A DNA stretch of 64,000 nucleotides from Tamarix chinensis (Eukaryota > Streptophyta > Magnoliopsida > Caryophyllales > Tamaricaceae): NCBI GenBank assembly GCA_030549775.1, contig CM060174.1:52888707-52952706 (forward strand), written 5' to 3'. Below are positions 2,771-53,194 of the stretch, piece after piece (position 1 is the first letter of the stretch; each line of letters opens with the position of its first letter). Made by a program: the position numbers and the translations under genes. The notes beneath the pieces are model-generated. The model had not been told where the DNA came from. It saw only the letters and a list, made by a program, of their open reading frames with translations, and did not search any database.

Positions 2771-2779
2771 ACCTAGAAA

Positions 2780-3420
2780 ACTACGTACCTCAAGGACGCT
2801 AGTAGGTGCCTTCTACTTAGTAGTTGCTAGAATCATTGTCGGTTCCACAGTGACTCCTCCTACTGACACCACATGACCTAAGAATGTAACCGTTGACAGG
2901 AAAAACTTTGCATTTGGAGAGTTTAGCATATAGCTTGTTCTCCCGAAGGAGTGATAAAATCGTCCATAGATGCTGCTCATTCTCATCTCTACTCCGAGAG
3001 TAAATCAAAATATTATCAATGAAGACCACAATAAAATGATCCAGGAACGGCTAAAAGATCCTCGTCATCAAATCTATAAAAATGATAGGCACATTAGTAA
3101 GCCCAAAAGGCATCACCGTAAAATCATACTGCCCGTATCGTGTCCTAAAGGCCATCTTTATGATGTCTACCTCGGTGATGTGTAGGTGATGATAACCCGA
3201 CCTCAAGTTGATCTTTGAGAAAATCTAAGCACCCCGAAGCTGATCAAATCAATACACAGATGAAGGCTCACATCCTTCTTCTTTACAAATAACACTGGTG
3301 CTCCCCATGGAGACTTACTCGGACAAACGTACCCATGTGCCACTAGATCCTCTAGTTGAGTCTTTAACTCCCGCAACTCTACCGGTGCCATCTGGTAAGA
3401 TGCCTTTGAAACTGGCTCCG
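2780..3420 (-). pseudogene. Element A reverse transcriptase (broken)
   Basis: The N-terminal part, in an open stretch at 3,203-3,706, shows MAPVELRELKTQLEDL followed by the SPWGAPVLFVKKKD block. Further along come VMPFGLTN and the catalytic loop, read as FIDN-ILIYSR in an open stretch at 2,817-3,029. The second aspartate of the usual YXDD box is therefore replaced by asparagine, which alone would abolish activity. A frame change separates the two stretches. The closest relative in the window is the RT of element D at 37,380-38,039. Confidence 0.9.
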
Positions 3421-3560
3421 CCCTTGGTACTAATTCAATGGTGAGGTCTATTTCCCGAACCGTTGACATACCTGGTATCTCTTTCGAAAAAAAATCAAGA
3501 AATTCTTGAGCAATCGAGATATCCTCCAACGCTGATACATCCTTATTCAGATCCTGAACT

Positions 3561-4178
3561 CTATACCAATACATAGGGTAACCCCTTTGGACCAACGAAT
3601 AAAATGCGTGGGCAGATACGATTTTTCGTTGTAGATCTAGGCTTGCATCTCCTATTAGAGACCCTAGCAACCTGTGGTCCCCGCAACACAACTCGCTCCT
3701 GTGCATAATCTATTACGTCTCTATATTTCCCTAGAATATCTATCCCAAGGATAGTGTTAAAATCCTTTAAGTCCAACTCAACCAAGTCCACTAGGAAGTC
3801 TACCTCACTTATCTCTAAGGCCACATCCAAGTAGAGCCTAGTACAATCCATTCTATCCCCATAAGGAAACATCACAGAAATATACACACAAGCAAATGGA
3901 GATATAACAGCTTTAGCAATGAAAGTAGAAGATACTAATGACAAGGATGCTCCCGAATCAAACAACACATATGCTGGTAATAAACGAATGGAAAATGTAC
4001 CTATGACTACATCTATTTGTTGATCAATCTTTGCTTGGCTGATGACATTCAAGCGCCCGATGGCTGTCCTCCCTGATATCCTCCATGATATGCTTTGGAA
4101 CCCTGAGTCTATCCTCCTTCTTTCTGAGAAAAGAGCGAGGTCCTTGCGGTCTCTCCTTAGTCTCCCTAGGTTGTACAC
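3561..4178 (-). pseudogene. Element A aspartic protease and gag-pol linker
   Basis: A 205-codon open stretch, the longest in the element. It contains the retropepsin active site DSGAS (DSGA codons at 3,948-3,959), followed by a DFNTILGIDILGKYRDVIDYAQERVVLRGP block typical of plant Ty3/gypsy protease. Element D has a matching block at 37,150-37,240. The protease would cut the gag-pol polyprotein. The frame overlaps the RT-containing frame at 3,203-3,706 at their junction, so a frameshift separates PR from RT. Confidence 0.85.
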
Positions 4179-4179
4179 T

Positions 4180-5290
4180 GGCTAGGGCTAGTGCCCTCTG
4201 GTGAAACTGCTGCTGTGGCAGTTGGTAGGTTCATTGCTGATATGCCTACTGCTGAGTAAAAATGGTCCCTACTGATGCTGACACTAAAAAGACTCGTGAC
4301 TCAGTTTACCACATGTTCTACACAGAATAGGAGTTCCTTGAATATTTCACCCCGGATGATCCCGATAACAAAAATGACACATGAAGCGCCTAACCAGACC
4401 AAAAGGTCTGCTCTGTCCCCCCAGCTGATAACTCAATGGTACACTCCCCCATAACTGAATCTTGCCTCTAGAACCTTGTATCTCTAGCTTCCTCTTACCC
4501 AAAATAGAAGCCTACTCCTATACCATAGTAGTGGAGACACAAGCCCACTCATACAAGGTGGCTAAGTCTTGAAAAGCCACAATAGCCATCATCCTCCTAA
4601 TGCTAAAGTGAAGCCTCTGCTCGAACTAATACATGACCATAGATGCGCTAGCTGCTATTACTTGTGCAAACATCAATGGCATCGAGAATCTAGCATGGTA
4701 ATGCCTCATGGTCATGCCATCCTAGGTCAATTGCATGAACTCCTTCAATTTATCCTTCTTGAGGCTTTTAGGATAAAACTTGTTGCGGATTGATGTCTTA
4801 AAGTCCTCCTAAGACATATGTGGTCCTTCCTTCACACGATGACTTACCAACCAAGTTTCAACTACTCCCTAGAGAAAGAAAGCTACAATGCTAGCCTTTC
4901 GAGCAGGCGGGTAATCTAGTGCCATGTATGTCATGTCCATATCGTGGATACATCACTCCAAGATAACTAGGTCCTCGTCACTAAAGTAGAGCATCGAGTT
5001 ATGCCTTATAACCCTCCAAAGCCAGTCTTCCCTAATGCACATGGTGACTAACTAGCTGTAAGAAAGAAATTATGTTATGGCCTAAGACTTCCTAGAAAAA
5101 TAACACATAATGCACATAATTCACATTTTCAAGGCCACCTAGGCTACTCGCACTCGGTTCCTCATAAGTTAATTCGGGTCACATATAATAAAACTAGGTT
5201 TTCTTATATGTGAAATAGACCATAGAATTCAGATGAGGGATAGCTGAAAACCAAATTTTGAAAATCAAAACACGATAATCAAAACTAAAA
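4180..5290 (-). pseudogene. Element A gag (broken)
   Basis: Lies between the primer-binding site and the protease on the minus strand. A zinc knuckle of the form C-x2-C-x4-H-x4-C is encoded at 4,281-4,322, with a stop just before its last cysteine. Upstream text has the composition of a retroelement capsid but is heavily broken, and no open frame of useful length remains. Plus-strand frames here, such as 4,569-4,793, are shadows. Confidence 0.65.
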
Positions 5291-20218: not shown

Positions 20219-20438
20219 GAATGCCCAATTGGCTTGGTTTGGCTTTATCCATAAATGCCCAATTGATTTGGTTTGGCATTGTCCATAAATGCCCAATTTT
20301 TTTGGTTTAGCATTGTCCATAAATGCCTTATTGAATTGGTTTGGCATTGTCCATAAATGTTTAATTGGTTTGGTTTGGCATTGTCCACAAATGCCCAATT
20401 AGTTTGGTTTGGCATTGTCTATAAATGCCTAGTTGGTT
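20219..20438. repeat. 34-bp tandem array in B2
   Basis: Six to seven copies of a 34-base unit with core CATAAATGCCCAATTG and TTGGTTTGGCATTGTC. Unit length is constant and divergence is low compared with the surrounding LTR. The minus-strand frame at 20,141-20,398 simply translates the array and is not a gene. Confidence 0.88.
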
Positions 20439-21519
20439 TATTTGAATATCTTATTTGATTAAGATATTTGTTTATGAAATTGTGTGGTCATGTAATGAGT
20501 TATCAATAATATGGATTATTCCTACCTGAGGCGCATGAACTACTTTACATTTCCATCATATCACACTTATACGTTTAAGTAGGATGTTGCATATGTTTCG
20601 TATGTTTTTATGATGTGGTTATTGAGTATGCATAATATTGTATCAATGTAATGCACCATGATTCAATATGCAATTAATATTGTAGTTTATGTCTCTCCTC
20701 TAAGATAGGGTAGTGGGATTTACTCAGTATTAGACCTATACTGATATTACGTTTGTTGTTTGGGTCCTGTGATGAGCCACTGATGGTGGTGGGCAGGCAA
20801 TTTGTGCATTTTTAGTATTGAATGTCTTCTACTCGGGAGGAATTTTTTCCTTGGATTTTGAGAGTAGGTTATCCGATAATTCAATTTGGTGAATAAAGTT
20901 GGATCCATTGTTGGGATGCCCCTTGATTCTCTTTTCATATTTTATTATATCTCAAATGTATTACTTTGGTGTGTAAATCATTCACTTTATTTGTATTTAG
21001 TTGGTTTGTGATTTTGTTGGTTATGTATTTGGATTTTATATCCTTTTTCTTTTTAAGCTTTGAAAATCCAAGGTTATATCATATGTTTTCCGTCCACTTT
21101 ATCAGCGATGTTTTGGTTCTGAGAAACCATTCTCCTCTTGCTAAATTGGGAAATTTATTGTGGGACTTTACTCCCTTGGTTTGGATGAGGTTTAAATTTT
21201 GATTGGACAAGTTTAGCCTTGTATCTGGCATAGGTTAGGTGAATGCTCACACCTCTCCTTATGTTAGATTTGGCGGTTTCATCTACATTCTTATTTTAGC
21301 TTCCGCATTTTCCTTTGTAAAACAAAAATTGTTAGGAGTGAAAAATGGGCTTGTTACAATTATTGCTTTTTTACACATTGCTAGAATTATTTGATTCATA
21401 GAAACAATCAAGAACGTACTAATATGTGAAGATTTGGTAGTATTTTGAACTAGATTTTGTTATACCTAGTTTGATAAATGTCATTTGAGTTTGTATTGCA
21501 TTTTTGATCAAAACAACAT

Positions 21520-22679: not shown

Positions 22680-24186
22680 TTATACAGTTTCAAGCTAATA
22701 GGAAACCTAACATATGAGAGAAGATATTTAAGACTAATGGAAGAGTGGAAGATACAGTTTATTGAGTCATAATTGATAGTTGTTTGTGTAAAAATGTGGA
22801 AAATGAGGGGATGATGATGGATCTAGGATTTAATAAAACAAAACATATAAATCCCTATTCTCTTTAGTGGCTTAATAAAGATATATGAGTCAAGGTAAAC
22901 AAAAAACCATAACCTCCTTTTGAATTAGTAATTATCATGATGAGGTGCTATGTGATATTTTTTCTATGAATGCATGTGGAATATTATTAGGTAGAACATG
23001 GAAATATGATAGATGTGTAGCTCATATTGCTATTACTAATGAATATCTTGTTGTGAAATATATATAAAAAAACATCAACTAAAGCCTTTTAAGTATGATA
23101 ATGCTAGCATTGATAAGAATGAAAAGAGTTTGATTTTACATGAAATGGATATTATAGAATATATTTTAAAAGAGGGTAGTTGTTATGCTTTTATTATCAA
23201 TGAAACCCTATAAGGGGAGAAAAATTGTGATAATCCTTGATTACATGATATTCTTGATGAATTTAATTTTGTTTTTTGTTTCTTATGACCTGCCACCCAA
23301 AAGAGGTATAGATCATATCATAGATTTAATGCCTAGTGTGTCGCTACCTAATAGACGCGCATATAGATGTAATGTGAAAGAGGATAAGGAACTAAAAAAC
23401 GAAAATAAAACTGCTTATAGGAAGGGGATATACAAGAGAGAACACGAGCCAATGTTGTGGATCGAAATTCTTATTCCAAAAAAGATGGCACATGGCATAT
23501 TTGTAACGACTCTCATGCTATATATATAATAAAACTTTTGAATATTAATTTCCTCGACCTATATTATATGACATGTTAGATGAATTGTGTGGATCAAAAG
23601 TTATTTCTACAATGAATCTAAGGATTGAGATATCATTAAATGAGGATAAAAGAAGGGGATAAATGGAAAACAATGATCAAAACTAAATATGATCTTTACA
23701 AGTTGAATGCGATACCTTTTGGTTTGTGTAATGCACCTAGTTCATTTATGAGACTTATGAATGAATTTGTTCATCTTTTTCTTTGAAAATTCATTGTGGT
23801 GTACTTAGATCATATACTTGTATATAGTAAAAATGAGCATGATCATCTTAATCATTTAAGGAAATTATTTGATAAAGTAAGAGACTCCAAACTCTACAAA
23901 AAAATGGTAAATTATGACTTTATACTTTCAAGTTTTGTTTTCCTATTTTATAATGTAAGTATTGAAAAAATAAAAGTGGATCTCATGAATATTTAAGCTT
24001 CTTAAGATTTGCCTATACCTAAAGACATTTAAGATTTGTGTAGTTTTTGTGGACTAGTGCATTTTTATAACAAGTTCATTAAATACTCCTCAATTTTTGC
24101 TTCTCCAATTACTTATGTCGTAAAGAAATGCAATAAAATATGGGGAGATAAACCAACTCAAGACTTCGATACTTTGAAAGCCAAGT
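22680..24186 (+). pseudogene. Element C protease and reverse transcriptase, first part
   Basis: The protease remnant near 22,750-23,060 reads VIIDSCLCKNVEN, a variant of the I-DGGS-CTN type site, then WLNKD and an LLGRTW-like block. RT begins with DLPPKRGIDHIIDLMPSVSLPNRRAYR (about 23,290-23,370) and continues through a PFGLCNAPSSFMRLMNEFV block to an open stretch at 23,796-23,996. There the catalytic box reads YLDHILVYSK, so the second aspartate is histidine. The frame runs into LKAK at 24,180 and is cut by element D; it resumes at 53,195. It is a Ty3/gypsy lineage distinct from A and D. Confidence 0.88.
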
Positions 24187-24302
24187 TGTAACACCCTAAA
24201 ATTTTTCTTATGAATAAATATTAAAATAATATATTAATAAATGAGATAAAATATAGGTACATATAATAAAAATAATATTAATAATAATAATATTTTATTG
24301 AA
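24187..24302 (+). mobile_element. Element D 5' LTR, left fragment
   Basis: Starts TGTAACACCCT directly after target duplication CAAGT (24,182-24,186). It matches the start of the 3' LTR at 51,998 (ATAAATGATATAAAATAGAGG-like text). After an AAT/ATA-rich stretch it is broken at about 24,302 by the pararetrovirus and resumes near 31,705. Confidence 0.85.
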
Positions 24303-24755
24303 GGAGGTATTTTCTTTTAAAACATGAAGAAATTTTCCTGAAATTAATTCGTTTAAGTCCTCACCGGTGTTTTGATCATCTTTAGATTTTTCGTTTTCAC
24401 TGGATTCTGGAGATGGGTTGGAGACTTGTTTTGCCAATATTATTTGGATAGTTTGCATGTCAGATGCTTGTTTTGATTTTAACTCTTTTAGTTCTTTTTT
24501 GACTTCTTTAATTTCCTGTTGGAGTTCAGAAGTGGTCGGAGTTAAAACTTTTGATTTCTTTTGTTTGCTAAGAATCTTTGTCAAATCATAAGCATTTGCT
24601 GGTTTTGAAGGAATGTTCTGTTTTAATGGTGCAGGTGTTTCATTTTTCTCAATTGACTCCATTAATTTTTTCAAGTATTCAGCTTGTTTTAATGGGTCTG
24701 GGATTAAATGAACTATGCCTAAAACCATTTTTTGTTGTTTGGTCAAAACATTCAT
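24303..24755 (-). pseudogene. Pararetrovirus: C-terminal coat-protein/linker segment
   Basis: A charged, lysine/glutamate-rich stretch with a predicted coiled-coil-like block (LQQEIKEVKKELKELKSK). It lies between the zinc knuckle and the break of the circle. The open frame runs past the viral edge into LTR sequence at 24,302 down to 24,234; those last residues (a leucine/isoleucine-rich tail) are host-LTR readthrough, not virus. Function beyond a spacer between coat protein and protease is unknown. Confidence 0.7.
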
Positions 24756-24833
24756 TTGGTTTTCTACAGGCTCTCCTTCTGTGTCAGAAGAGCTGCTAGA
24801 AGAGGAAGATGACTCTGTTTGGAGTTCATCTAA

Positions 24834-26195
24834 CTATGGGTTTTCGTTATCATCCTTAGAAGATACTAGGAGGTTTTGAATCTTTTCCCTAGTTTCATCG
24901 TCTAAGTCTAATTCACGAATTTGTTTTGCAGAATTTTGATGTGTGTCCCATTTTACCACATTTGTAGCATCTATAGTTTCTGTATCTTTTTCCCCAATCC
25001 GGGTTTTTTGAAGATGAAACTGTATTTTTGCTATTCTTAGGTTTTGTCTTTTGGTAATAGGGTATCTGTTTTTGATTCTGCAGAGCAGGCAAATATTTTT
25101 GTTTTGTCTTTTTGTGGTGACTAGGTCTACAATTTCCAAAACATTATTTGTTTGTTACACCTACAATGTCAAATTGTTTACAAAAAGATCCTAGTTATTG
25201 TTTGGTTTGATTTAATTCCTTTTTGAGTTGTTTTTGGAATTTTAAATCTTGACAAATTTTTAAAGCTTCCTTTTGTGTGAAACTTATTAATTCGCCATAA
25301 GTGAATTTGTTGTAAGGAATTTGATTGTTATGCATTTCTTTAATTTTGTTCCTTACTTTTCCTCCTAACATGGGCGGTAGACCATCTAAGAACTTTTCCT
25401 TCCAAAACGGTTGGTTTGAATCTTCCCTAAGCATGACTCTAGTTACGAAAGTATTTTTGTACCACTGGAATTCATTAAGTCTTTTACACCTAAGGTTTGA
25501 CAATAGTTCGCCATTTTTGTCCTTAAGGTGTGAAGGGTCTCCTACGAAGTGTAAGGAAGGGATGCTACAGCATCAGATATGGGTTCTCCATTATCTAAGA
25601 TGATTTCGTCATTTTCATCTACCTTAATGGCGTCTAAAATATCTATTTGTTCGTTTGAAGTTAAATGAAAATCCCACCATCCTTTTAACTGTCCTGAGAA
25701 CCCTGCTATCAGGAGTTCTGCTATAGTTTTGTCGGATGTGTTCATTTGGGCTTTGTATGCGTTTGCTGCCATAGTCATTTGTTGTAAAAGGCCTAAAATT
25801 TGGTATTCCGACAGTCCATCTATGTTCCATTCATAAAGTGAATTGGCTTTATAGCTGGGCTGAACTAGTTTGTTGGGCCTTACTTCTAGACTAAGGTCAG
25901 GTGCAGTTTGTCTAGGTACTATGGTCCTAGATGTTGATGGTATGTCTAAACGGGCTACTACAGGAGTTTCAGGTTCTTGGGCCTCATCACTCTCTGTTTG
26001 TTCCGTTTGGTTAACCATGTTAATTTGGGATGTTTGGTCAGGTGTGTGTGGAACCTGATTCTGGTTTTGACTAGACGAAGTTGAAGTGGTAATTAAATTT
26101 AATTTTTCCTTAATTGCGGTTACAAATTCATCTTTTTCATTTTTGATTTCTTTTTTGCTGGATTTTGATAATTCAAAGGGTTTGAATACAAGCAT
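24834..26195 (-). pseudogene. Pararetrovirus coat protein (broken)
   Basis: Three open stretches in different frames. The first, 25,542-26,195, holds NIDGLSEYQI and a GFSGQLKGWWDFHLT block, the conserved capsid core shared by plant pararetroviruses and related gag proteins. The second, 25,195-25,503, holds WYKNTFVTRVMLREDSNQPFWKEKF and YGELISFTQKEALKICQDL. The zinc knuckle follows at 24,928-24,969. The protein would form the virion shell and bind viral RNA through the knuckle. At least two frameshifts and one or more stops separate the stretches, so no single coat protein could be made. Confidence 0.85.
24928..24969 (-). other. Coat-protein zinc knuckle, C-x2-C-x4-H-x4-C
   Basis: Fourteen codons on the minus strand give C-YK-C-GKMG-H-TSKF-C. 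All four metal ligands are present. It lies in a different frame from the charged open stretch 24,834-25,139, so a frameshift is close by. This motif is diagnostic for retroelement and pararetrovirus capsid proteins. Confidence 0.9.
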
Positions 26196-26358
26196 TTTCT
26201 TTGGTTCAGTTTTCTCATTTTCTGAAATAGTTTGAATTGCCGTGAGTATTGTCTTTTAAATTTTCTTATCCAGTTTTGTTAATTGGTTACCGATTGTGTT
26301 TAGATGAACGTTTGTGAAATTATTTTGTAACACAATATTTTTGGTGTTTTCAAGTTCA

Positions 26359-27354
26359 TCATCTTTTGGCAATCTTAAGGGTTTTAGTTTCTACAGTGTT
26401 TTCTCCTGCAGGCATTTGAATATTTTGAAGAGGCGGATGTTCTGTTTCCATAGTTCCTCTATCAGTTTTCCAAGTTTTGGTTTTTTGTCGACTAGTTATG
26501 GATTTTGCAGATTTAAATGGTGAGTTTTTTAATTTCTTTAAATTTACACCATTATTTTGCATTTTCATTTCTAACCAATCAAAAAACATTATTTTGCATT
26601 TGTTGTCAGCAATGAATTTATAGAATTCTTCCTGAAGTTTGCGACTTTATTTTGCCAGATTTTTTATGAACCAATTTCTTTTATCGGTATTTTTATCTGA
26701 GTAAAAGTTAGCTCTAAAGAATTCTCTATCTATGACAAATTCCTTTTCTAGGACGTTTAACTGGTTATCGGTTATGTCAGAAAGGCTAGGAGAATGTGGA
26801 GGTGATTCTATTTCATCATCACTAGTTTGTTCCGATTCTTTTTCTTTCTGTTTTTGATAATTTGCCTTAGGAATTCTAGTTTGGTAGTTTGCACCTTTAA
26901 ATGAAGTTTTAGTTGTTTCATCTATGGAATTCCTATTTTTTTGAGTTTTATCTTCCAGGTTTATATTTTTAGGAAGGTTCAAAACGTTTCCTAAACTAAT
27001 TGTGGAAGAGGTCGAGGCATCATCCTTAATTCTAAGGCTTGGATTCCTCCTGAAACTAAGTTTGACAGTTCCGTCATCGAACTGGGCTATCCTATTTAGG
27101 TTTGTATTTGGTTTCGGAATTTCCGGTTTGTTGATTTGAAGGTCACGTTCTTCCGTTTTGATTATATAGTTTGTGGGGAGAATATGCCAGTTTGAGGTTC
27201 TATAAACCATTTCCTTTTGAATTTTGGGAAGTTTCCACGTATCTATGGATCCTTTAAAGTTTTCAAATTCATATTCTTCAGTTTGTCTGTTTGAGTCTCT
27301 AGGTCCTATGTCATGCCTAGAACCAGAAGAACTAGATGATCGAAATAAATGCAT
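26359..27354 (-). pseudogene. Pararetrovirus polyprotein N-terminal region (movement-protein position)
   Basis: First long open stretch after the leader: 235 codons at 26,647-27,354 from an ATG, followed by a second stretch at 26,359-26,589 in another frame. The start is serine/arginine-rich, then a W-KLPK block, a DDGTVKLSFRRN block, then a charged disordered part. In florendovirus-type genomes this position holds the movement protein followed by a linker to the coat protein. I can see the flanks but no clear 30K-type movement-protein core, which suggests an internal deletion or strong divergence. The function of the remaining part is unknown. Confidence 0.6.
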
Positions 27355-27365
27355 GTCCCTATCCT

Positions 27366-27487
27366 ATTTGTTTGTAAACGGCTTTCACCCACCTACAAGT
27401 ATTAGGAACCTTACTGCCTCCCTCACAACGGGTCTTACGGCCTTACTGCCTAAACATAGGTGCTTACCTCACGGCCTACAAACAAAT
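27366..27487 (-). other. Leader stem with uORF-like text
   Basis: An 11-base perfect inverted repeat (27,366-27,376 with 27,477-27,487, core ATTTGTTTGTA) encloses about 100 bases of leader, between the primer site and the first long ORF. Large leader hairpins are a known Caulimoviridae feature, used for ribosome shunting and packaging. Only the stem is seen; the role is inferred. Confidence 0.45.
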
Positions 27488-27536
27488 AAAGAAAATGACC
27501 AGATACACTTACCCCTCTCAAGAGCTAATCTCGTTA

Positions 27537-27549
27537 GGCTCTGATACCA
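27537..27549 (-). other. Pararetrovirus primer-binding site (tRNA-iMet)
   Basis: Minus strand reads TGGTATCAGAGCC, an exact plant initiator-methionine tRNA primer site. It lies about 230 bases downstream of the TATA box and 180 bases before the first ORF. In Caulimoviridae this marks the start of minus-strand DNA synthesis and position 1 of the genome map. Confidence 0.93.
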
Positions 27550-28198
27550 TGTACGCCAAGGATCTCGGGATGCAGACGGGCAACCTGAAGAATATAAAAA
27601 AGAAAGCAATAAAGGATAGATGGATAGCTAGGAAAACAGCGGAAATAAAAAAAGGGAAATGGATAGATGAGATAGAATTTTATTTGGTAACACTCATCTC
27701 GAGTACAGAGGAAATTTTTCTAAGGGTGGATTTGCCTCTCCAAATACCGACCCCGAAAAATGAAGTCCTAAGGTCCCTTATATAGAAGAAGGGGTCCGGT
27801 ACTTACAAATTTGAAAAGTGGATTCGGGAATCCACCAAAAAGTAAACAAAAAAAAGTAAACAGTAAAAGTCGTACTGTCTACAGTACTGTCTACAGGAAA
27901 AGTTTGGATAGTACAAGGTAAAAGTACAAATAGTAAATGTTAACCCTAGAAAAACTACAGTAATCCGCGTGATTGTACTTTGCCGCAGATTCCTTTGTCA
28001 TCTTTCTCTTTTGCTTTTACTTTATTCTTTTACCATGGTAAAACGCCAATCGCCGAAAGTAGATTCCTACTTCTTTTGAGGTCGGCACTTTTGACTTTGA
28101 CACGAAGTTTGGGCTGGTAGGAATATTCTTTGTCTGTAACGATCTTTGACGCATGTGGATGCGTAATCCTCCACAGGTGATACCCGTATTTGTACTCT
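27550..28198 (-). promoter_or_regulatory. Pararetrovirus intergenic region and promoter
   Basis: Non-coding stretch between the end of ORF2 and the primer site. The TATA element CTATATAAGG (TATA core at 27,778-27,785) lies where the full-length RNA promoter is expected, so transcription would start near 27,750. Upstream there is AT-rich text with an AGTACTGT-CTACAG direct repeat near 27,872-27,898. The plus-strand open frame 27,495-27,785 across this region is a shadow. Confidence 0.75.
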
Positions 28199-29624
28199 CT
28201 ACCGGATAGGAGGTAGTATCCCATAACAGTCGTCTTCGTTCTCATCACAAAAGTCTATCTCTGGAATGGCAAATGAGGCTTCAGACTCTCCTTGTTTGGT
28301 TTGAGAGAGTACTTCATTCATGATGGCGAGGTACTCATCTTCACTTTTTGCGGCTGTGAGCTTGGCTGCCGTGACTGATTTTTGAGCCAGAAATTTTGAA
28401 TCTTTAGATCTGGCTAGGACCTTGTTTGTCGTAGAAGAGGCCGGTTGCGTGCTGATGTTTGCGAACGGCCTGCTCTGATACTTTCTCGAACGTTTGATAC
28501 TTTGACCACCATTTGACTTTGAAGCGGCGGACCAAAGTAGGGACTCCTTCAATCTCGTGGATTTCTGTTGTCCAGGCGAACACCCACGAGCAAAATAGTT
28601 TTAAACAAAAGGCAAAGATAGGGGGAAAAACCCTATCGTCTTTTGTGGGTTTGTAAAGGGTTTTGAACAGGTCAAGGGATTTTGATACCTGTTCCGGTAG
28701 GATTTCTGGGATGGCGCCAAAATCTCTCCACCATCGGATGAACCAGACAGGGTAATGCGTTTGGTTGAAATTTTTGAAAAACAATAATTAGGAGTGTGAC
28801 TTTTTGGAATTTTCTGTAAAGAAATTATTCCACCAAGCCTGTTGATAGTCCCAGTAGTTGAAATTTAGTTTGACGTTTGGGCTAAATTTGTACGAATCTG
28901 GGAGCCTTCGAGGCAATTCGAGGCTTTGTCCCCAGTCCGCAGGAAGGATAACCCTGTGCAGTTGATAGGTTGAGTAGGCGGCTTCGTTTTTGGTTTGGGG
29001 TAATTTGAAGGTTCGAAATGAAGCTGAGCCTGTAAACTCTAAAATTTATTTATAGTACGCATGGGGTGCAGTCACGTCCCATGGTTTGAAATCCCAACCA
29101 AAAAACATTTTCTGAAGGGAAACGAAGGGATCCTGACAATGGAATCCATCTTCGAGGTTTGAAATGATTTGAAAATTCTGTTTTGTAAAATATTCAGCTT
29201 TTTTCTCGAAAGCTGGTTTTATTTCCATAACATTTTCGAGTCTTGAAATTCTTGATCTCAAGGCCAGAATTTTACAAATCTGTTTGTCAGAAGACAATTT
29301 TGAAATCGCTTTTGAAGGAGTCATAGGGATTAAAATACCTCCTTCAGTTTTGTAAACAGGGTTTGAGGAACACATACCTTTGCTTTCAGGTTGAGAACTC
29401 TGAACTTGTTTTGAGATTTGCTGAAGTGCTTTGAGGACTTCAGGAGACTAGGTAAGATTTTCTACCCACTTTTGAACATCCGAGTTTGAAGAAGCTTGTG
29501 CTTCTTGGTTTGGTGAAGCAGCTGCTACTGCTTCGTCCTCCATGGTTGCTTTATACCATGATTTGATTGGCTTCGCAACCAATATTTCTTGGACCTTCTC
29601 TTTTCCTTTCTTTCGAGGAGGCAT
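28199..29624 (-). pseudogene. Pararetrovirus ORF2, function unknown (broken)
   Basis: Starts at an ATG at 29,624 with a basic MPPRKKGKEK-type N-terminus and an alanine-rich acidic part, then a stop near 29,450. An open stretch at 29,046-29,375 ends in a GWDFKPWD motif. After a frame change come 28,404-28,784 (tryptophan-rich, WFIRWWRDFGAIPE and FKVKWW) and 28,199-28,552 at the end. A second ORF downstream of RNase H and before the promoter is a hallmark of florendovirus-type genomes; its role is not established. The frame is broken by stops and at least two frameshifts. Confidence 0.75.
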
Positions 29625-29733
29625 GGTTTGGTAGAGGGTGTCCTTGAAGAAATTCTCTTGTGAGAAAATCTAGAAGTGAGTTGTCATCACCCTTTAAGTA
29701 CTCGATCTTGAAATCGAATACGGATAGGATCGC

Positions 29734-31629
29734 TTACCATCTGGCATAGATCTGTTTGCTAGCGACATTCTGTACGTCCTTTTTGAGAATTTTCTTTGCA
29801 GATTTGCAGTCGACGTGTAACAGGAATTTTTGGTTAAGCAGATCAGACTGGAATTTGGTTATGGACTGAACTATTGCGAATATTTCTTTTTTGACAGTCG
29901 AATAGTTCTGTTGAGATTGGGTCCAGTGTCCGGATGTATATTGGATCACTGTTTCGGATTTGGGTTGAGAATGTTTGGTTTGGGCCAAATACTGTTCAAG
30001 TTTTTGGGCTTGGGACTGTTTAAGAATACCACCGTATCCAACCTCGGAGGCATCTGTCTCAACAATTTTGAAAAGGTTTAGGTTGGCCAAGGTCAGACAA
30101 GGGATGGACTGGACTTGGGCTTTGATATATTTGACGACATCCGTATGGGCTTGAGTCCAAGGTTTTGGGCTCTTTTTGAGTCTGTTGTGTAACGGTTTGG
30201 CAATCTATTTAAGATTGGGGTAGAAGTCTAAGACATAGTTTAGGCTTCCTAGGAACCTTTGGAGTTGGATTTTGTCTAGGATTTGGTCTGGAAACTTAGA
30301 CGCAATTTCTATGGACCTCTCGATGGGCCTAATACTACCCGATTCGATGAAATGTCCTAAGAATCTAATCCTAGTTTGGGCTAATGCAATCTTGGGCTTA
30401 GATACTACTAGTCCATTACGCCTAGCGACACTAAGGAAAATCCTAAGATGTCAAAAATGCTGATCAAGACTGTTTGAGTAAACTAAGACATCATCAATAT
30501 ACACTAGACAAAAGTTTGAATACGGATTAAAAATCTCATTCATTATTCTCTGAAACTCAGAAGGAGCGTTTTTTAATCCAAAGGGCATTACGTTCCATTA
30601 AAAGTGTCTGAAAGGAACAATAAAGGCAGTTTTGTATTGGTCATCTGGTTTAATCTAAATTTGCCAAAAACCCGATTTTAAATCAAATTTTGAAAAGATA
30701 ATTGCTGAGTACAATCTTTGAAGCAAATCTTTTTTGTTTGGTATGGGATACCTAATCCATTTGAGAGCGTCGTTTAAAGGTTTGTAATTAATTACTAACC
30801 TAGGGGTTCCACGCTCTATTTCAGAATTTTTATTAACATAAAATGCCGCACATGACCAAGGCGATCTAGACTTAGAAATTAAACCTTTTGTTTCTAAATC
30901 TTTTATCTCTTGTTTGCAGTGTTCAATCAAGTCTGAATTCATTTGAATTGGTCTAGCTTTTGTTGGTATCTGTCTCTCGTCGAATTTTTCCTCATACGGG
31001 AGATCTATCATGTGATGTTTTCTAGACCAAAAGGCGTTTGGGAGATCAGAGCAGATCTTTTTTTCGATTTGATTTCTAATTTGGTCAATCTTGTCTTTAA
31101 TCAGTTTTGTTTCCAACTGGTTTTGGATTCGTGACAATTTGACATTTTGTTTTAAGAAATCTAAATCATTTTGTTTGCCTTTGATTAGAAGATTAATTTG
31201 ATCTTCATAAATTAAGTTTGCTTTTAAGAGGTTCAGGTTTCGAGTCCTAGGGATTTCTAAAAAGGATAAATTATTCTTTTTCCCTTTTGATTTGAAAGAA
31301 ATTTCGGACAAACCTACTTTGTAAGGGGTTATCAAATTAATGAAGGGAGTACCTAGGATAACTGACTGACTAATATCGGGAGTTATCAAATAGGTTGTTT
31401 TGATTTGTAAGTTGTTACAAATTAAATCCGCTTCACATTTGTATTTGATTTTTAATCTGGAGCTGTTGGCTGCAGATAATTTTTCGTTTGACTTTGAGAG
31501 GTATTTTCTTGGAATAATTCCCTCTTTGATACAGTTTAAGTCAGCACCGGTATCAAATAGTATGACTGTATTTATTTGAAAACCATCCTCTAACCTAAGG
31601 GTTATACTGATGATATATTTGCGGGAGGT
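29734..31629 (-). pseudogene. Pararetrovirus protease, reverse transcriptase and RNase H (few stops)
   Basis: One reading frame can be followed almost without a shift from 31,629 to 29,734. The protease site FDTGAD lies near 31,545-31,560. RT begins around 30,960 with KARPIQMN, SPWSCAAFYVNK and RLVINYKPLND, then KFDLKSGFWQI. The catalytic box YIDD is intact at 30,490-30,501. RNase H follows with ETDASEVGYGGIL (29,734-30,090), FAIVQSI and a VDCKSAKKIL block. Only about three in-frame stops are seen (near 30,655, 30,596 and 30,206), two of them TAG/TAA where CAG/CAA is expected. This is far better preserved than the polyproteins of A, C or D. The enzyme would copy the viral RNA into DNA. It is not functional as it stands. 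Confidence 0.9.
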
Positions 31630-31704
31630 TATTTATTTTTATTATTTGAAAACCATCCTCTAACCTAACGGTTTGTCTGTTTGAGTCTCTAGGTCCTAAG
31701 TCAT
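31630..31704. other. Filler DNA at the right pararetrovirus junction
   Basis: Between the end of the viral body and resumed LTR lie two templated copies. 31,642-31,668 repeats 27 bases of the adjacent protease region (31,572-31,598) exactly. 31,671-31,704 repeats 34 bases of the polyprotein N-terminal region (27,291-27,324) with one mismatch. Both copies are in the same orientation as their sources. Such patchwork is typical of end joining with template switching. Confidence 0.85.
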
Positions 31705-32463
31705 TTCTTTATTTACGGAATAATAATAATAATATTATTATTATTATTTAATTTAAAATTTTATTTTTTAGACTTATTCTAATTCCTTATTTTAATTATT
31801 TAGCCTAAAATCATTATAGGTAAATTATAACAAATTTTATTTATTTTTATTAATTTCCCAAAAACACAACCTAAAAATCCCATAATATTTTTCATTTTCT
31901 TTCTCCATTTTTTCTTATCTACTTCCTTTTCTTTTTCTTTTCTTTTGTTCCTTCTTCTTCTTCCTTTTAACCTCCTCCTTTTCTAGCTTGGGTTGTGCTA
32001 CAACGGTCCAAGCACCCCCTTCTCCTCTTATCTCTAATCTCCCTTGACAAGCCTAACTCCTTTCCCCTTCCCTTCTTACTTTTCCCCATAGGAGACGACC
32101 CAAACCCCTCCATTATTTCATTCTTTTCCTTTTTTCTCCCTCCCTTCTCTCCATTTTTCCTTTTTCTCTCCTCATCTCCTACCTTTTACCCAACAGACTC
32201 TACACAACCCCCAATTCAATTTTCGCACCCCCACAACTAGCAACCTAGCTACCTCCCCTCACTCTTTCCCTTGTCATCTATGGAAGGCATGCACGCTGGC
32301 ATGACCCTCCATGAGCCATGCACACACCTTGTACCCATTATACCCATTAAACAGCACGACCCTACATTTGTATGCGTTGTCCTTCCCCTGCCATGGATGT
32401 TCAGCCCAGTGACTGGCCACCCTTGTTCTTTTTCTTCCTTTTCCTCCTCCTCCCCTTATAGCC

Positions 32464-32471
32464 TATAAATA
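32464..32471 (+). promoter_or_regulatory. TATA box of element D 5' LTR
   Basis: GCCTATAAATACCTCC, a consensus plant TATA box, followed by a C/T-rich stretch where transcription would start. It lies inside the pyrimidine-rich zone of the LTR. The equivalent stretch is deleted from the 3' LTR. Confidence 0.65.
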
Positions 32472-34389
32472 CCTCCAAATCTACCCTCTCCTCTCTTCAC
32501 CCTCGTTGACCTTACCTTGCACCCCCTACACCAGCCTTTTGTTGTTGCCACTATTGCAACCAAGTCAAGCTACTACCCAACTTCCTCCCCTCTCCCTTCC
32601 TTCCACCTCCTTACACCTACTAAGCCCATCATTACCCTCTTCCTACCCTTCCATTCGTCTCCCGGAGCTTGTAAAGTTTGTAGGTTGCGCCACCCTATGC
32701 TACCCTGTACCACCTCACAACATCACAACCATCAGCCCATTCCCCCTTTGCTACACCGCCTCCACACCTTAACCTCCTACATATGTGCCCAACCTAGGAC
32801 TCTAGCCCTCTCCACCACTTTTCCCTCTTATTTTCCCTCTTTCCACCTTCCTTCCTCTCGGTCATGCCATGGGCACAGCCATGACCCACCTCCCTCCCAC
32901 TGGCCTACCTAGTGCCAACTGCACCATCTACCCCCAAAAGACTAACTGCACTCTTTTCTTAACCAACAACTATTTTCCACCTTGCGCTGCTACTACTGTT
33001 GTGTTTGCCTCCATGCCGCTCTCCAATTCTCTTACCTATTCTAGTCACCACCACTTTATTTTCCTCTATTTTGATTTCTATTTAATTAAATTTATTAATC
33101 TTATTATTTTTGTAAGGAAAAAAGAAAGGGGAAAATGAAGGAAAATGGATACAATAGCCTAAGTTTTGGTTTTTTGATTTTTAGGTTATTTTCTTCTGAA
33201 CAAAGGAGATGAGGTGTAGGTTTTTCTTGCTTCAACTTAGCCAGGGCCTTGTGTTTATGTGACTTTTTTATGTGTTAAGTGAGTACTTACATGAAATGTT
33301 ACATGTTCTAGAATTTGTAGTGAATCTTAGCTTGCAAGTATCTAAGGTAGGAATATGTGTGGAACTAACTAGTTCATATGTTGATATATACTTCTATTAT
33401 ATGGTATTGCATGTTTTGAGTATTTTTGATAAGTTATTGTATTTTATGATATGGGGATTAGGCAGGGTTTTAGACACTCGAGGGCATTTTGGTCACTATT
33501 ATGGAAAATGGCATATGGGCAAATCCTTGGGAAAGTTTAGTTAAATATTATTTGATGGCGTTAAACAATAACTATGGTAATTATAAAAGTGGATTAGGGT
33601 AGATATTGCATGGATTGGGTTAACCATACATGGGGTGAGTCAAACCCAATACGGGTCATGTCAAGTAGTGACTAAGTAAGGGGTTGTAGCTAAGTATGGA
33701 TGTAGGGGAGATGATAACTTTGTTTGGTGGCTTGAAAACAAAAATGGGGGAGTCCTTGGATGCTAACGAATAGGAGGTTACTAGGTAGGTGAAGCTAGGG
33801 TTTTAGTTGTATAAAACCCTAAGGGTAGGTCATTATCACATGTAGAAAATGGGTGTTGGGTTGTACCTATAAACTATGATGTTAATATGCTATTGGGGGA
33901 TTATGTACTAAGTTTGATGGCTAGGTGGGATAATTGAGAGGAAATACAACTACTAGAGGGAAATTAGGGTTTTAAGAGGAGCCCATTGGGGAGGTTGTTA
34001 TCATATGAGAAAAATGATGGAGGTAGGCTATAAAATGTTAGGAGAAGGATAATCATATTAATATATGCTTGTTTGTGGAAGTTTAAGGTTCAATAAGTAG
34101 TAGAGAAGGGGCTAGTCTCATCTGGGTAAAACTAGGGCTTCGTGGAGTAACCCTAGGGGCTAATTGTTATCATATATGAGGAATGAGGGATGTAGGTTAT
34201 GACTCATGAATAAAATGGGTTTGTAATGGTAGGTTCGGGTTGATGGATAAATTGGGGACACAAAGGATCATTAGGGGTGAGGATGTACTAGGCTTAAGAA
34301 ACTAGGGTTTCTAAGGGGCTTGGTTAGCTTAAGGTGGTAGTAGGATAGGAGCCATAATTGAGTTGTTCATGGGTTTTTGTAGTATCTAA

Positions 34390-35010
34390 TTAAATAAGAC
34401 ATGAATAAGACACTAATTACTAATATTAGAAGATCACTTGAGTCAAGGCTGGTTATACCCTATTAACTAATCCACCGATGTGACCAAGTGTGTACTGCCC
34501 TACGGTTATATCTTATTTACCAATCAACCTGTGAGAATATTGGGATCTTGAACTCAAGTAATTAATACCATTGGATGATAATAACTATAGGAAGACACTA
34601 ATTACCTAAAGTGGAAGATCACAAGAGTTAGGGCCAATTATACCCTATTAACCAATCCACTAGTGAAAATAGTGTCCAGGTAAGTGCTTCCTTGGGGTTG
34701 GACCTTATTTACCAATCCACTGGTGATGATAGTGAGTTCCTAAACTCAAGTAATAAAACCCTTGAATAATAATAACCTATGGGAAGATACTAATTATTTA
34801 TAGTGGAACACCACATAGGCTGGAGTCAATAGTACCTTATTTACCAATCCACCAGTGATAATAGTAGCTAGGAGCGTACTGTCCTAGGGTTGTATCTCAT
34901 TTACCTATCCACCGATGAGATTAGTGGTAAAGAGTGTGTTGTCTTACGATTTTATCTTATTTTCCAATCCACGAGTGAGAATAGTGGGGTCCCGAGACTA
35001 TGTGGACATA
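34390..35010. repeat. ~190-bp tandem subrepeats in D 5' LTR
   Basis: Three units starting at the words GACACTAATTAC or GATACTAATTAT (34,408, 34,595 and 34,786), plus a partial one, each about 190 bases. Each carries the core ACCAATCCACTGGTGA followed by GAATAGTG, once or twice. The 3' LTR keeps roughly one unit at 52,410-52,560. The core is the reverse complement of the CACTATT..CGGTGG motif in the A- and B-family LTRs. Confidence 0.8.
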
Positions 35011-35629
35011 ATTCATGAGTTGATTATTTATGGCACAATTATCATGATTCAAAATAACAATAATGAACAAACTATTATGTTCTACTTATGCAAATTTTTA
35101 TTTCTTGCTTATCATGTCATTAGTTGATTTATTCTTTCTTGATTGTATTTTTATCTTACTCATTACGTAGTGTACTAATCACCAATTTTATGGGTGATGC
35201 TCATTCCTATGAGTAGTGTCCCCTCCTAAGCCTATGTAAGTGACTGAGGATTCCCTATATGAATTTTCTTCTTATGATGACATGATCGAGGAAGAGTGAT
35301 GTTGTAGTAACCTAGGGTTGGGGCTTGGAGAGAGTGAAATCTGAATATTAACCATTTCAACTTTCTAGTTTATTATTTTATTGTACTTAAACAATGTTTC
35401 TACATTTCAGTATTTTCTTGGTGACAAACATTTAACCTTCATTATGTCATGAAATTCTTTCCTTGCTATGTTTATCATGGTTGCCCTTTTTTCTACCATG
35501 CATTTTATTTCATATGAGGATGGTCTCAAACCAGACTTATACCAATTATGGTTGTAACATCGCCTCTTATGGTGTATGTTTTTACGTTTAAAAAAATTTT
35601 CAATGGTCATTTTTGGGGGTGTTACAAGT

Positions 35630-35642
35630 TGGTATCAGAACC
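35630..35642 (+). other. Primer-binding site of element D (tRNA-iMet)
   Basis: TGGTATCAGAACC, one base off the initiator-methionine site, starts three bases after the LTR end at 35,626. It fixes the plus orientation of D. Confidence 0.9.
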
Positions 35643-36999: not shown

Positions 37000-38039
37000 T
37001 CTGCTAGAGTATATATGTATCTATTATGTTACCCTTGGGAGATAGGATGGATTACACTAGGCTCTACTCAAGGGTGGCCTTAGTGATAGGTAGGGTAGAC
37101 TTCCTAGTAGACTTGGTCGAAATGGATCTATGAGACTTTGATGTCATATTAGCGATGTAAATGCTCGAAAGATATCATACAATGATAGATTACACACAAC
37201 AATGTGTAGTGTTGCATGGATTGAAGGGTACTAGGGTTTTATATAGGAATCCCAAGCCTAATCCCACCATAAAGGTGGTGTTTGCTACCACACTACACTC
37301 ATTGATCCAAAAGGGGTACCTGAAGTACCTTTGTAGTGTCTAGGAATTGAAAAATGATCTAATAGACTTATGTGAAATTCTTATGGTTCATGAGTTCCTT
37401 GAAGTGTTTCTATAGGACATCCCAAGTATGTTGTTGGTGCGCAAGATTGGCTTTACCATCATCCTAGTGCCAGGGGACAAAATGGTCCCATGGGCCCCTT
37501 ACGAGATGACACCAGTGGAGTTAAAAGAGAAAAATACTTAGCTAGAGGAGTTGCGAGACCACAAATAGTTCCAACCGAGTGTATGTTCATACGGAGTACC
37601 CATTCTATTTATGAAGATAAAGGATGAGAGCCTCTGCCTCTATAATGACTACTCAGGGTTGAATTAGTTAATAATCAAGAATCGGTATCCACTTTTAAGA
37701 ATCAACAACCTTTTAAATTAGCTACAAGGTGTTACTATCATCTCCCAGGTTAACTTGAGATCAGGATACCACCATTTATGCATTGCAGATGTTGACATCA
37801 TGAAGACAACATTTCAGACTCAATATGGGCATTATAAGTTCATGGTGATACCTTTTGGCCTCACCAATACACCTCTTGTCTTGATAGAAATGATGACTAG
37901 GATCTTTAGGCCATTACTCGACAAGTTTATATTGGTGTTCATCGATTATAATTTGGTGTATTCTCTAGGAAAAGAAGAGCATGAACAACACCTTCGCACT
38001 ATCCTATCCCTCCTTTCAGAGCACCACTTGTACGCTAAG
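37000..38039 (+). pseudogene. Element D protease and RT, first part
   Basis: The protease tail MLERYHTMIDYTQQCVVLHGLKGTRV (open at 37,161-37,343) matches element A's. The linker, RT fingers (MTPVELKE-like, then a C-YGVPILFMK-like block) and RSGYHHLCIADVDIMKTTFQTQYG follow, with FGLTNTPLVLIEMMTRIF. The catalytic box is FIDYNLVYS in the open stretch 37,755-38,126, where the second aspartate is tyrosine. The frame stops at HLYAK at 38,039, where LTR A3 inserts, and resumes at 49,638. Confidence 0.88.
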
Positions 38040-38956
38040 TGTAACACCCTAGATTTTACTATGCAAAAATGTTGTTTCATAGTGGAACCATATAAAACAA
38101 ATATTGGGTTTTACAGTCCTTATTGACATAATTCTTGTTTGTCTAACTATCCTTACATCAATCACAAGGCTAGAACCATTCATAGTTAAATAATGAAATT
38201 GGAAATGGAAGATACTTTTATAAATACAATATGAGTTTGGAGGTTAAATTTAAATTACAAAATATAAACCAAGGGATACCATGGATCAAAGAGTCCAAAA
38301 ATATATCTGAGTAAATACATCAATCGGATAGCATAACCCTTAGCCCAAAAATCTAGTGTAGATAACAACTCACTCATCCCAATATAGTGCATCAAAACTA
38401 GCAAAGTCATTTAGCTGGTCTTTAAAGACCTACACAATAGAATTAGTGTCCCTTGCTCATGGGAATGAGAAACATCCATAAAAGGGTGGTGAGTATGCTA
38501 CTTGCTAGGTAAGGTAACAATGCTATTGATTCAAGGATACAGACAAAACATGCATTTACACCTAGTGATGAGTACACATTCAATCTATGAAAAAAAATCT
38601 CATAAGATAAAATACTAATCCAAGTCTCTTTATTAGGTATAACCATCTTTATTCTTTTATATGTGTTAAGTTCAGGATTTCCACTATTCTTAAACCATTC
38701 CAATAATCTAAGGTACTTTCTCAGGGAAAACACACCTAACCCACTATTATCATCCAGTGGAATGGATCTAAAAACATCACCTTATTGTAGCAAAATGCTC
38801 CCGAGCCACTATTATCATCCTATGAAATGAATATAAAAACATCACCTTAGTCCCGACTCATGTACTCTTCCACTTTAATTCATTAGTGTATTATTCATAA
38901 GTTGCACAATTTATATTTTCTTTCACAATGAGTAGGGACCCCACTATTTACAATTA
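38040..38956 (-). mobile_element. A3: A-family solo LTR, left part
   Basis: Starts TGTAACACCCT right after CTAAG (38,035-38,039). It aligns with the A LTRs at 5,306 and 7,358, including CCTTACATCAATCACAAGG and GGTATAACC..ACTATT subrepeats (38,680-38,850). It carries no internal coding region. It is interrupted at about 38,956 by B4 and resumes at 47,675. Confidence 0.82.
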
Positions 38957-40661: not shown

Positions 40662-41015
40662 CCATGCAAAACCCTAACTCCACCATGCAAACCCTAATAC
40701 CACCATACAAACATTAATACCACCACACGAACCACAACACCACCATGCAAGCCCTAATACCACCATAAGCCATTAATATCACCATGCAATCATTAATACC
40801 ACATACAAAAATTAATGCCACCACACAAACCATAACACCACCATGCAAACCCTAATACCACCATAAGCCATTAATACCACCATGCAATCATTAATACCAC
40901 CATACAAACCCTAATACCACCATGCAAACCATAATACCACCATGCAAACCCTATTACCACCATGCAAACCATAATACCACCATGCAACCATTAATACTAC
41001 CATGCAACCATTAAT
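40662..41015. repeat. ~20-bp tandem array in B3
   Basis: About 17 diverged copies of a unit close to ACCACCATGCAAACCCTAAT. CCCTAA words arise from this unit and are not telomeric repeats. B1 lacks a comparable array at the equivalent position, so it expanded in this lineage. Confidence 0.85.
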
Positions 41016-49632: not shown

Positions 49633-50330
49633 CTATGCTATCTAAGTGTGGGTTTTTTCTTCTTGAAGTGGCCTTTCTAGGACACATAATATTAGCTAAA
49701 GGAGTCATAGTGGACCTAACAAAGATAGTATGGGTTACAGAGTGGAAGACCCCCATGAATGTGTTATAGGTTTGTAGCTTTCTGGGTCTGGTGGCATATT
49801 ACACATACTTCTTGTAGAATTTCTCAAGTATTGCTCATCCTTTGATAATTCTATTAAAGAAAACTACCATGTTTCACTAGATGAGACTTACAAAGGGGCA
49901 TTCTAAGAACGGGAGAAATGCTTGAGTAAAGTACCTATTCTAACTCTGCCACCTAGATCTAAGGGATTTGAAGTCTATAATGACTCATCTAAGCATGGGT
50001 TAAGGTTTGTATTGATGCAAAATGGTAGGGTGGTCACTTACGCCTCTTGTAAGTTGAAATGGCACAAACAAAACTACTCAACTCATGATTTAGCATTGGT
50101 CGTAGTGGTTTTCACATTAATGATCTGGAGGAACTACACATATGGGACTAGATACATATTGTTCATTGACCACAAGACCCTTAAATACATAGCCACTAAT
50201 AATTAGTTGAACATGAAACAAAGAAGGTGGCTAGAGCTTGGAAAAGGATTGCAACATCGAGTTAACTTACCGTGAGGGGTAAAGCCAACGTGATTGCATA
50301 TGCCCTATAATGAAAGACCTCACACACTAT
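49633..50330 (+). pseudogene. Element D RT end and RNase H
   Basis: Resumes the frame left at 38,039: after the duplicated CTATG comes CTATCTAAGTGTGGG, giving LSKCGFFLLEVAFLGHII, then VTEWKTPM and FLGLVAYYTYFL. The RNase H open stretch 49,922-50,206 shows FEVYNDSSKHGLRFVLMQ, VVTYASCKLKWHKQNYSTHDLALVVVVF and LFIDHKTLKYI. Stops occur before and after it. The first catalytic aspartate of the DAS motif reads N-D-S-S. Confidence 0.88.
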
Positions 50331-51997: not shown

Positions 51998-53189
51998 TGT
52001 AACACCCCACAATATTTCCTAAGAATAAATAATAAAATAATAAATGATATAAAATAGAGGTATATATAATACTAAGAATAATAATATGAGAGTTAAATTT
52101 TATTACTTTGTCTTATTCTGAGCCTTATTTAATTATTTAGCCTAAAATAAATTATAGGTAAATTATAACATTTTTTAATTCCCTAAAAATTCCACAACCT
52201 TTTACTTTTGATTTTCTCCTTTTCTTTCTCTTTTTTCCTTTCTCCTTTATTTTCTTTCTCTTTTCTTTTATTCCTTCTTCTTCTTCTTCTTCTTATTTCT
52301 TCTCCTCGGCAATGCTAGGGTTTCCAATACGACAGGGTTGGCCTGAGGTGGTAATAGGGTGGGATTCATACTTGAGTTAAACATGGTTATGTGTGGTATC
52401 TAAAAAATATGACACTAATTACTTAAAGTTGAAGATCACTTGATTGAGGCCCAATTATACCCTATTAACCAATCCACTGGTGAGAATAGTAGCTAGGAGC
52501 ATGTTACCCTGGGGTTTCACTTTATTTATAAATCCATTAGTGAGAATAGTGGAGTCTCAAGCCCACGTGGTCATAATTCATTAGTTGATCATTTATGGCC
52601 CTATTATCATGTGTCCAAATAATAATAATGAATAAACCATTATGATCTACTTATGCACATCTTTATTCCTTGTTGTGATATCGTTAACTACTTTATTCCT
52701 ACTTGTTTGTATTGTTACATGACTCATTTCATAGCATACTAATCACCCCTTTTATGGGTGTTGCTTAATCCCATAGTCATTCTCCCCTCTTGATCCTTTA
52801 TAGGTGTTGAGGATGCCCTAGATAACTTTGCTGCTTATGATGACATATTCAGGGTAGAGTGATGCTTTAGTAACTCAAGGTTGGAGCCCAAATAGTGTTA
52901 CATCCAGATATTAACCATTTTAGCTTTCTAATTTAATGATTTATTCTACTTGAACAATGTTTCTATTTTTCGGTATTTTCTTGGTAACAAAGATGTAACC
53001 CTTATTATATTATGAAACTCTTTCCTTATGGTGTTTATCATGGTTGCGCCTATTTCTACTATACTTTGTAGTTGGTGTAAGGATGGCCTAGGGCCAAATT
53101 TATACCAATTACTACGGTAACACTCCCTCTTATGGTGTTTGTTTTACATTGAAAATGAAAATTTTTTAATGGTGGTTTTTGGGGGTATT
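51998..53189 (+). mobile_element. Element D 3' LTR (internally deleted, 1.2 kb)
   Basis: Starts TGTAACACCCC and matches the 5' LTR at its beginning and pyrimidine-rich zone. It then jumps near 52,310-52,400 to text equivalent to about 34,300-34,400 of the 5' LTR, so roughly 2.3 kb is missing. One subrepeat remains (52,410-52,560). The tail matches 35,100-35,626 (for example TATACCAATTA and CTCTTATGGTGT). It ends GGGGGTATT, lacking the final ACA, directly before target duplication CAAGT (53,190-53,194). Confidence 0.85.
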
Positions 53190-53194
53190 CAAGT

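What the first reader, a model, noticed from the sequence alone, without database searches (positions are those of the whole stretch)
24303..31629. Near-complete, circularly permuted endogenous pararetrovirus
One uninterrupted 7.3-kb block carries every main part of a Caulimoviridae genome on the minus strand, but starting at the protease and ending at the coat protein. The ends share six bases (GGAGGT) and line up in frame, so a single genome-length circle opened between coat protein and protease explains the order. No multimer, rearrangement or host filler is seen inside. Most endogenous copies are fragmentary, so a single-copy whole circle is informative about how such DNA enters chromosomes.
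Basis: partly seen in the sequence, partly recalled or inferred. Interest (0 to 1): 0.88.

Follow-up and report, generated by a model that had tools for sequence, protein, structure and literature searches.

The report
Whole virus circle captured with filler
A plant chromosome holds one full turn of a decayed circular plant virus, opened at a single point, and part of the DNA sealing one end was copied from the virus itself, which points to break repair as the way it got in.

Summary
The block is real. Open pieces of 24303-31632 (minus strand) match aspartic protease, reverse transcriptase, RNase H, zinc knuckle and the Caulimovirus coat domain, and an exact tRNA-Met primer site lies at 27538-27549. 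The viral ends were not joined. Each end piece was aligned alone to relatives spanning the coat-protease boundary. In 4 of 30 testable relatives, the closest testable one included, both ends reach the same residues with a 2-3 residue overlap. One circle opened once is well supported.

Two claims fail. No movement-protein domain was found. The right junction is not clean: 31642-31673 copies viral 31572-31603 (31/32) and 31671-31704 copies viral 27281-27314 (33/34), same orientation, overlapping by 3 bases.

The virus lies in the 5' LTR of a retroelement (24187-53189, CAAGT on both sides). The partner 3' LTR lacks it, so the virus came later. Most likely a circle was captured during repair of a break in an AAT/ATT repeat by microhomology-primed, theta-type end joining. 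It is a new member of a known kind, with unusually informative junctions.

The parts
24303..31629 (-). Endogenous caulimovirid block, one turn of the circle, opened between coat-protease linker and protease
   Evidence: Pfam matches of open pieces; end test with homologues
30658..31632 (-). Aspartic protease and first part of RT, open piece of 325 aa
   Evidence: RVP 7.3e-05; RVT_1 0.0033, below its cut-off; 589 homologues of 2117 candidates; PDB 8r0s 'Enzymatic polyprotein' 1e-16
30454..30597 (-). RT core piece
   Evidence: RVT_1 6.1e-14
29737..30204 (-). RNase H piece
   Evidence: RT_RNaseH_2 9e-22 and RT_RNaseH 2e-18
28202..29447 (-). Second ORF region in broken pieces, about 415 codons, no family match; position and size like florendovirus ORF2
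   Evidence: comparison with passage
27538..27549 (-). tRNA-Met primer-binding site, 12 of 12 bases
   Evidence: consensus recalled
26362..27363 (-). Front of ORF1 in two open pieces; DUF7588 only, no movement-protein domain found
   Evidence: no homologue scored
24916..26255 (-). Coat region: DUF7746, Caulimovirus coat domain, zinc knuckle, in broken pieces
   Evidence: DUF7746 1.7e-32, PF22909 7.3e-20, zf-CCHC 1.3e-04
24303..24308 (.). Left copy of the six bases shared by both viral ends
31624..31629 (.). Right copy of the six shared bases
31629..31644 (+). Probable filler patch, identical to host flank 31837-31852
   Evidence: 16/16; of 360 pure-AT 16-mers outside the virus the only one with a copy 50-300 nt away is this pair
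31642..31673 (+). Filler patch copied from viral 31572-31603 (protease region)
   Evidence: 31/32
31671..31704 (+). Filler patch copied from viral 27281-27314 (ORF1 front)
   Evidence: 33/34
31705..31718 (.). Short stretch of unclear origin; a weak match of 31700-31714 to inverted viral 27484-27499 with one gap
   Evidence: 10 of 400 shuffled words match as well
31719..31748 (.). Perfect 30-base AAT/ATT palindrome next to the insertion
24187..35626 (+). 5' LTR of the host retroelement, split by the virus; followed by a primer-site-like sequence at 35630-35641
51998..53189 (+). 3' LTR of the same element without the virus: paralogous empty site
24182..24186 (+). CAAGT, left target repeat of the retroelement (right one at 53190-53194)

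Best explanation
One nuclear copy of a caulimovirid circle with a florendovirus-like layout was broken once, between the coat-protease linker and the protease, leaving ends that overlap by 6-9 nt. It was captured as patch DNA during repair of a double-strand break in an AAT/ATT repeat inside the 5' LTR of a resident gypsy-type retroelement. The left end was joined almost directly. The right end was closed by microhomology-primed synthesis that copied short patches (probably host flank, then viral protease region, then viral ORF1 front) with 3-nt overlaps at the switches, as polymerase-theta-type end joining does. The copy then decayed. Shown: permutation, overlap, two viral patches, empty partner LTR. 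Inferred: a circle as substrate, a staggered break, the repeat as break site, the polymerase.
For: Both ends fall on the same residues of boundary-spanning relatives: 4 of 30 testable with a 2-3 residue overlap; left piece above 30 shuffles in 23 of 30. Patches of 31/32 and 33/34 directly between virus and host, and no other DNA match of the viral block elsewhere in the window at E 0.01. AAT/ATT sequence on both sides. The 3' LTR is empty and joined flanks match it (266 identities). Decay estimates place the virus after the retroelement, with wide limits. AT-rich repeats, break repair and filler are the published idea for this family.
Against: In 26 of 30 testable relatives the left alignment stops short of its end, and in 7 of 30 it does not beat shuffles. 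The left junction shows no patch. The microhomologies are only 3 nt, and 31705-31718 is unexplained. The host-flank patch is AT-rich and was noticed after the fact. No orthologous empty site, sister copy or raw read could be examined, as the window's assembly did not answer (tries). The theta signature is recalled knowledge.
Confidence: 0.7

Rival explanations
1. The virus entered as part of a virus-retrotransposon chimera made during reverse transcription and was inserted by the retroelement's integrase.
For: The virus does lie inside an LTR, and this route is proposed in reviews.
Against: The partner 3' LTR carries no virus. LTRs are made from one template and are identical at insertion (established knowledge), so the virus came later. 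No short target repeat flanks the virus itself; the filler is not an integrase product.
Confidence: 0.06
2. The patchwork at 31642-31704 arose in the virus, by template switching in reverse transcription, before a permuted viral molecule was joined to the host.
For: Template switching is known or proposed for such elements (passage). Both clear patches are viral.
Against: The patches lie exactly between the permuted viral end and host DNA, and a probable third patch is from host flank.
Confidence: 0.12
3. The unit was cut from a tandem array or concatemer, or is the remainder of one, rather than from a single circle.
For: Tandem arrays of endogenous caulimovirids are often reported.
Against: A unit with only 6-9 nt present twice would need two breaks at nearly the same place; no second copy is in the window.
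Confidence: 0.1

Closest known systems
Endogenous florendoviruses (Geering et al. 2014, PMC4241990; passages, section 9 whole)
   Same: Order coat-protease-RT-RNase H in one frame series, a second ORF without known relatives, tRNA-Met site, length within 7.2-8.5 kbp, next to AT-rich simple repeats and transposable elements; short gain or loss of sequence at insertions is reported there
   Different: No movement-protein domain found here; repeat is AAT/ATT, not (TA)n; the passages read do not describe patches copied from the virus; genus not tested by a tree
T-DNA and transgene insertions in plants (review PMC4274372, passages only)
   Same: Extra DNA taken from the insert or the plant, and microhomology, at junctions
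   Different: The insert here is a viral circle and the event is old
Integrated rice tungro bacilliform-like sequences (known here only through passages)
   Same: Insertion at AT-rich repeats
   Different: Different virus; its junctions were not examined here

Membership tests
Caulimoviridae (endogenous) | Caulimovirid coat domain with protease, RT and RNase H | tested here: met
   PF22909 7.3e-20, RVP 7.3e-05, RVT_1 6.1e-14, RT_RNaseH_2 9e-22
Caulimoviridae (endogenous) | tRNA-Met primer site | tested here: met
   12 of 12 at 27538-27549
Caulimoviridae (endogenous) | 30K movement protein (PF01107) | tested here: not met
   No match in 15 pieces at E 1 or 10 pieces at E 10 (two pieces are in both sets). 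No positive control was run, and broken pieces lower sensitivity. The fold of the ORF1 front had pLDDT 38.7 and decides nothing
Caulimoviridae (endogenous) | No integrase | tested here: met
   No integrase family among the matches of the pieces tested
Florendovirus | Second ORF of 45-58 kDa without known relatives | tested here: inconclusive
   About 415 codons at 29447-28202 in broken pieces, no family match; no florendovirus ORF2 was at hand to compare
Florendovirus | ORF1 of 205-216 kDa with movement protein | tested here: not met
   At most 5305 nt even if it began right after the primer site, roughly 200 kDa; no movement-protein domain found
Florendovirus | Genome of 7.2-8.5 kbp | tested here: met
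   Block of 7327 bases
Florendovirus | RT falls in the florendovirus clade | not tested
   No genus-labelled references were obtained; relatives include Amborella proteins at about 45-51% identity but carry no genus label
Theta-type end-joining product | Filler copied from insert with microhomology at switches | tested here: met
   31/32 and 33/34 with 3-nt overlap
Theta-type end-joining product | Dependence on polymerase theta | not testable with these tools
   Needs a genetic test

The most novel reading that the evidence does not exclude
The locus is a readable record of the capture of a whole nuclear viral circle by theta-type repair: break site, overlap, template switches and target are all preserved, the partner LTR is an internal empty-site control, and filler-source pairs act as a built-in clock for the insertion.
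Probability: 0.5. Interest if true: 0.6.

Novelty: new member of a known kind. Interest (0 to 1): 0.45.

Why it matters
How caulimovirid DNA enters chromosomes is called speculative in a 2023 review (section read). This locus favours break repair over a retroelement integrase, because the partner LTR is empty and the seal is copied from the virus itself. It also suggests a survey: if filler-source pairs are common at such junctions, they would both show the repair route and date insertions, as LTR pairs do for retroelements.

Tried and rejected
The six shared bases as proof by themselves: rejected, 288 of 2000 random window pairs share six bases at some offset. Opening at a polypurine discontinuity: the seven purine runs of 11 or more on the sense strand include none within 300 nt of either end, so rejected. 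Entry by retroelement integrase: disfavoured by the empty 3' LTR. Relatives in IMG/VR: nothing usable in four scans (one 31-residue match was not used). Rfam and tRNA scans found nothing in the window. Homologue searches of the ORF1 front (320 candidates) and of one second-ORF piece (5 candidates) gave none at E 1e-3; candidates are limited by length, so this is weak. NCBIfam gave only weak, unrelated matches. A single-sequence fold of the ORF1 front had mean pLDDT 38.7 and says nothing firm. No claim is made that templated filler at caulimovirid junctions is unpublished: two literature searches answered (the second, on filler and microhomology, listed three papers) and eight failed.

Full report
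Observation. The window has no N. On the minus strand, open pieces match in this order: aspartic protease and the start of RT (30658-31632), RT core (30454-30597), RNase H (29737-30204), an unmatched second ORF region (29447-28202), an intergenic region with an exact 12-base tRNA-Met site (27538-27549), an ORF1 front with only DUF7588 (27363-26362), DUF7746 (26255-25545), the Caulimovirus coat domain (25572-25198) and a zinc knuckle (25143-24916). In solved structures the best match is an 'Enzymatic polyprotein' (8r0s, E 1e-16), ahead of Ty3 RT.

Is it one turn of a circle? The ends were not joined. Each end piece was aligned alone to the 120 proteins held. Thirty of 120 reach far enough upstream of the protease to test; the other 90 were dropped for too little upstream sequence or because the right piece did not align from its start. 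In 23 of 30 the left piece scores above the best of 30 shuffles; in 7 it does not. In four (P0044, P0064, P0103, P0105) the left alignment runs to its last residues and ends 1-2 residues past the residue where the right piece begins, so 2-3 residues are shared. P0103 is the closest of the testable ones (55% over 229 aa) and its left score is 158 against a shuffle maximum of 53. In the other 26 the left alignment stops earlier, in a poorly conserved linker. So in these four nothing is missing, and 6-9 nt are present twice. The shared GGAGGT agrees with this but alone would be weak (288 of 2000 random pairs of 24-nt windows share a 6-base word at some offset; 13 of 20000 random pairs of 6-mers are equal). 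A linear replication intermediate would end at the primer site (established knowledge), so a cut between coat and protease points to a circle. That last step is inference.

Beyond 31629 comes a patchwork. 31642-31673 is a 31/32 copy of 31572-31603 in the protease region, and 31671-31704 is a 33/34 copy of 27281-27314 near the ORF1 front, both in the same orientation as their sources and overlapping by three bases. They are the only DNA matches of the viral pieces elsewhere in the window at E 0.01; by protein, the RT core piece also matches the three resident gypsy RTs, as expected. Before them, 31629-31644 is identical over 16 bases to host flank 31837-31852, again overlapping the next patch by three bases. 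Of 360 pure-AT 16-mers outside the virus, the only one with an exact copy 50-300 nt away is this pair itself; this patch is AT-rich and was noticed after the fact, so I call it probable. A further patch, 31700-31714 against inverted 27484-27499 with one gap, is weak: 10 of 400 shuffled words do as well. I found no patch at the left junction.

Where it sits. TGTAACACCC at 24187 begins an LTR; the LTR resumes right of the virus and ends in TGTTACA at 35626, followed by a primer-site-like sequence at 35630-35641 with one mismatch. A partner LTR at 51998-53189 aligns to both flanks. CAAGT stands at 24182-24186 and 53190-53194; the last bases of the 3' LTR are altered (TATT instead of TTACA). A degenerate gypsy pol broken at 24186 resumes beyond 53194: weak RT matches at 23640-23993 (below Pfam's cut-off), none for 24033-24185, and RNase H at 53271-53492 (3.8e-15). 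RT at 37722-38123 and RNase H at 49907-50203, on the same strand, fit an interior of the younger element. Hence I read 24187-53189 as one retroelement inserted in an older one, with the virus in its 5' LTR only. Joined host flanks align to the partner LTR with 266 identities over 315-318 aligned bases. Counting the AAT/ATT sequence on both sides adds 31-33 bases; the 3' LTR has 10-13 bases in small gaps that the flanks lack, so no sizeable host loss is seen. A perfect 30-base AAT/ATT palindrome borders the virus on the right (31719-31748). The LTR pair differs by K 0.24 over 1158 sites, unevenly (0.13, 0.18 and 0.27 in three stretches), and 31995-34302 has no counterpart in the 3' LTR.

Timing. 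LTRs are identical when a retroelement inserts (established knowledge), so an empty 3' LTR means that the virus came later. Decay agrees, with wide limits: 2 differences in 66 compared filler sites (per-copy change 0.015, 95% 0.002-0.055) and five in-frame stops in 693 codons of the protease-RT-RNase H frame (0.05, 0.016-0.12), against 0.12 for each LTR. The upper limit of the stop-based estimate reaches the LTR value.

Mechanism. The most likely course is a single break of a nuclear viral circle, then capture at a chromosomal break in the AAT/ATT repeat by microhomology-primed synthesis that switched template within viral DNA. Shown: permutation, overlap, patches, empty partner LTR. Inferred: circle, staggered break, repeat as break site, polymerase theta (its signature is recalled knowledge). 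A 2014 review passage on transgenes describes added DNA from insert or plant, and microhomology, at junctions. The 2023 review's section on integration calls the mechanisms speculative and names break repair and retroelement routes (whole section); a 2021 review's section on illegitimate recombination and the florendovirus paper's section on genomic distribution were also read whole.

Limits. No movement-protein domain was found: 15 pieces at E up to 1 and 10 pieces at E up to 10, two pieces being in both sets and no positive control at hand. ORF1 cannot exceed 5305 nt, roughly 200 kDa, a little below the 205-216 kDa given for florendoviruses (passage), so the length argument is weak. 'Near-complete' thus holds for length, not for the gene set; whether the domain was lost before or after entry is open. 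The genus is not settled: the layout suggests florendovirus, but a defining feature was tested and not met and no tree was made. The window's assembly could not be searched, so copy number, sister copies and empty orthologues are unknown.

Noticed in passing
24187-53189: A gypsy-type retroelement with CAAGT on both sides sits in an older gypsy pol; its RT (37722-38123) and RNase H (49907-50203) lie about 11.8 kb apart, so something else is probably nested between them.
   Followed up: partly
31995-34302: About 2.3 kb of the 5' LTR has no counterpart in the 3' LTR: an insertion in one or a deletion in the other.
   Followed up: no
34407-35009: Imperfect repeats of about 190 and 60 bases inside the 5' LTR.
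   Followed up: no
20220-20439: Tandem array of a 34-base unit, about 6.5 copies.
   Followed up: no
40662-41015: Tandem array with 20-base and 98-base periods.
   Followed up: no
57251-58794 and 752-4181: Minus-strand pol fragments of further retroelements: SH3_retrovirus and Pol_BBD at the first place, SH3_Tf2-1 and RVP_2 at the second.
   Followed up: no
24187-35626 against 51998-53189: Divergence between the two LTRs is uneven: K2P 0.13, 0.18 and 0.27 in three stretches.
   Followed up: no
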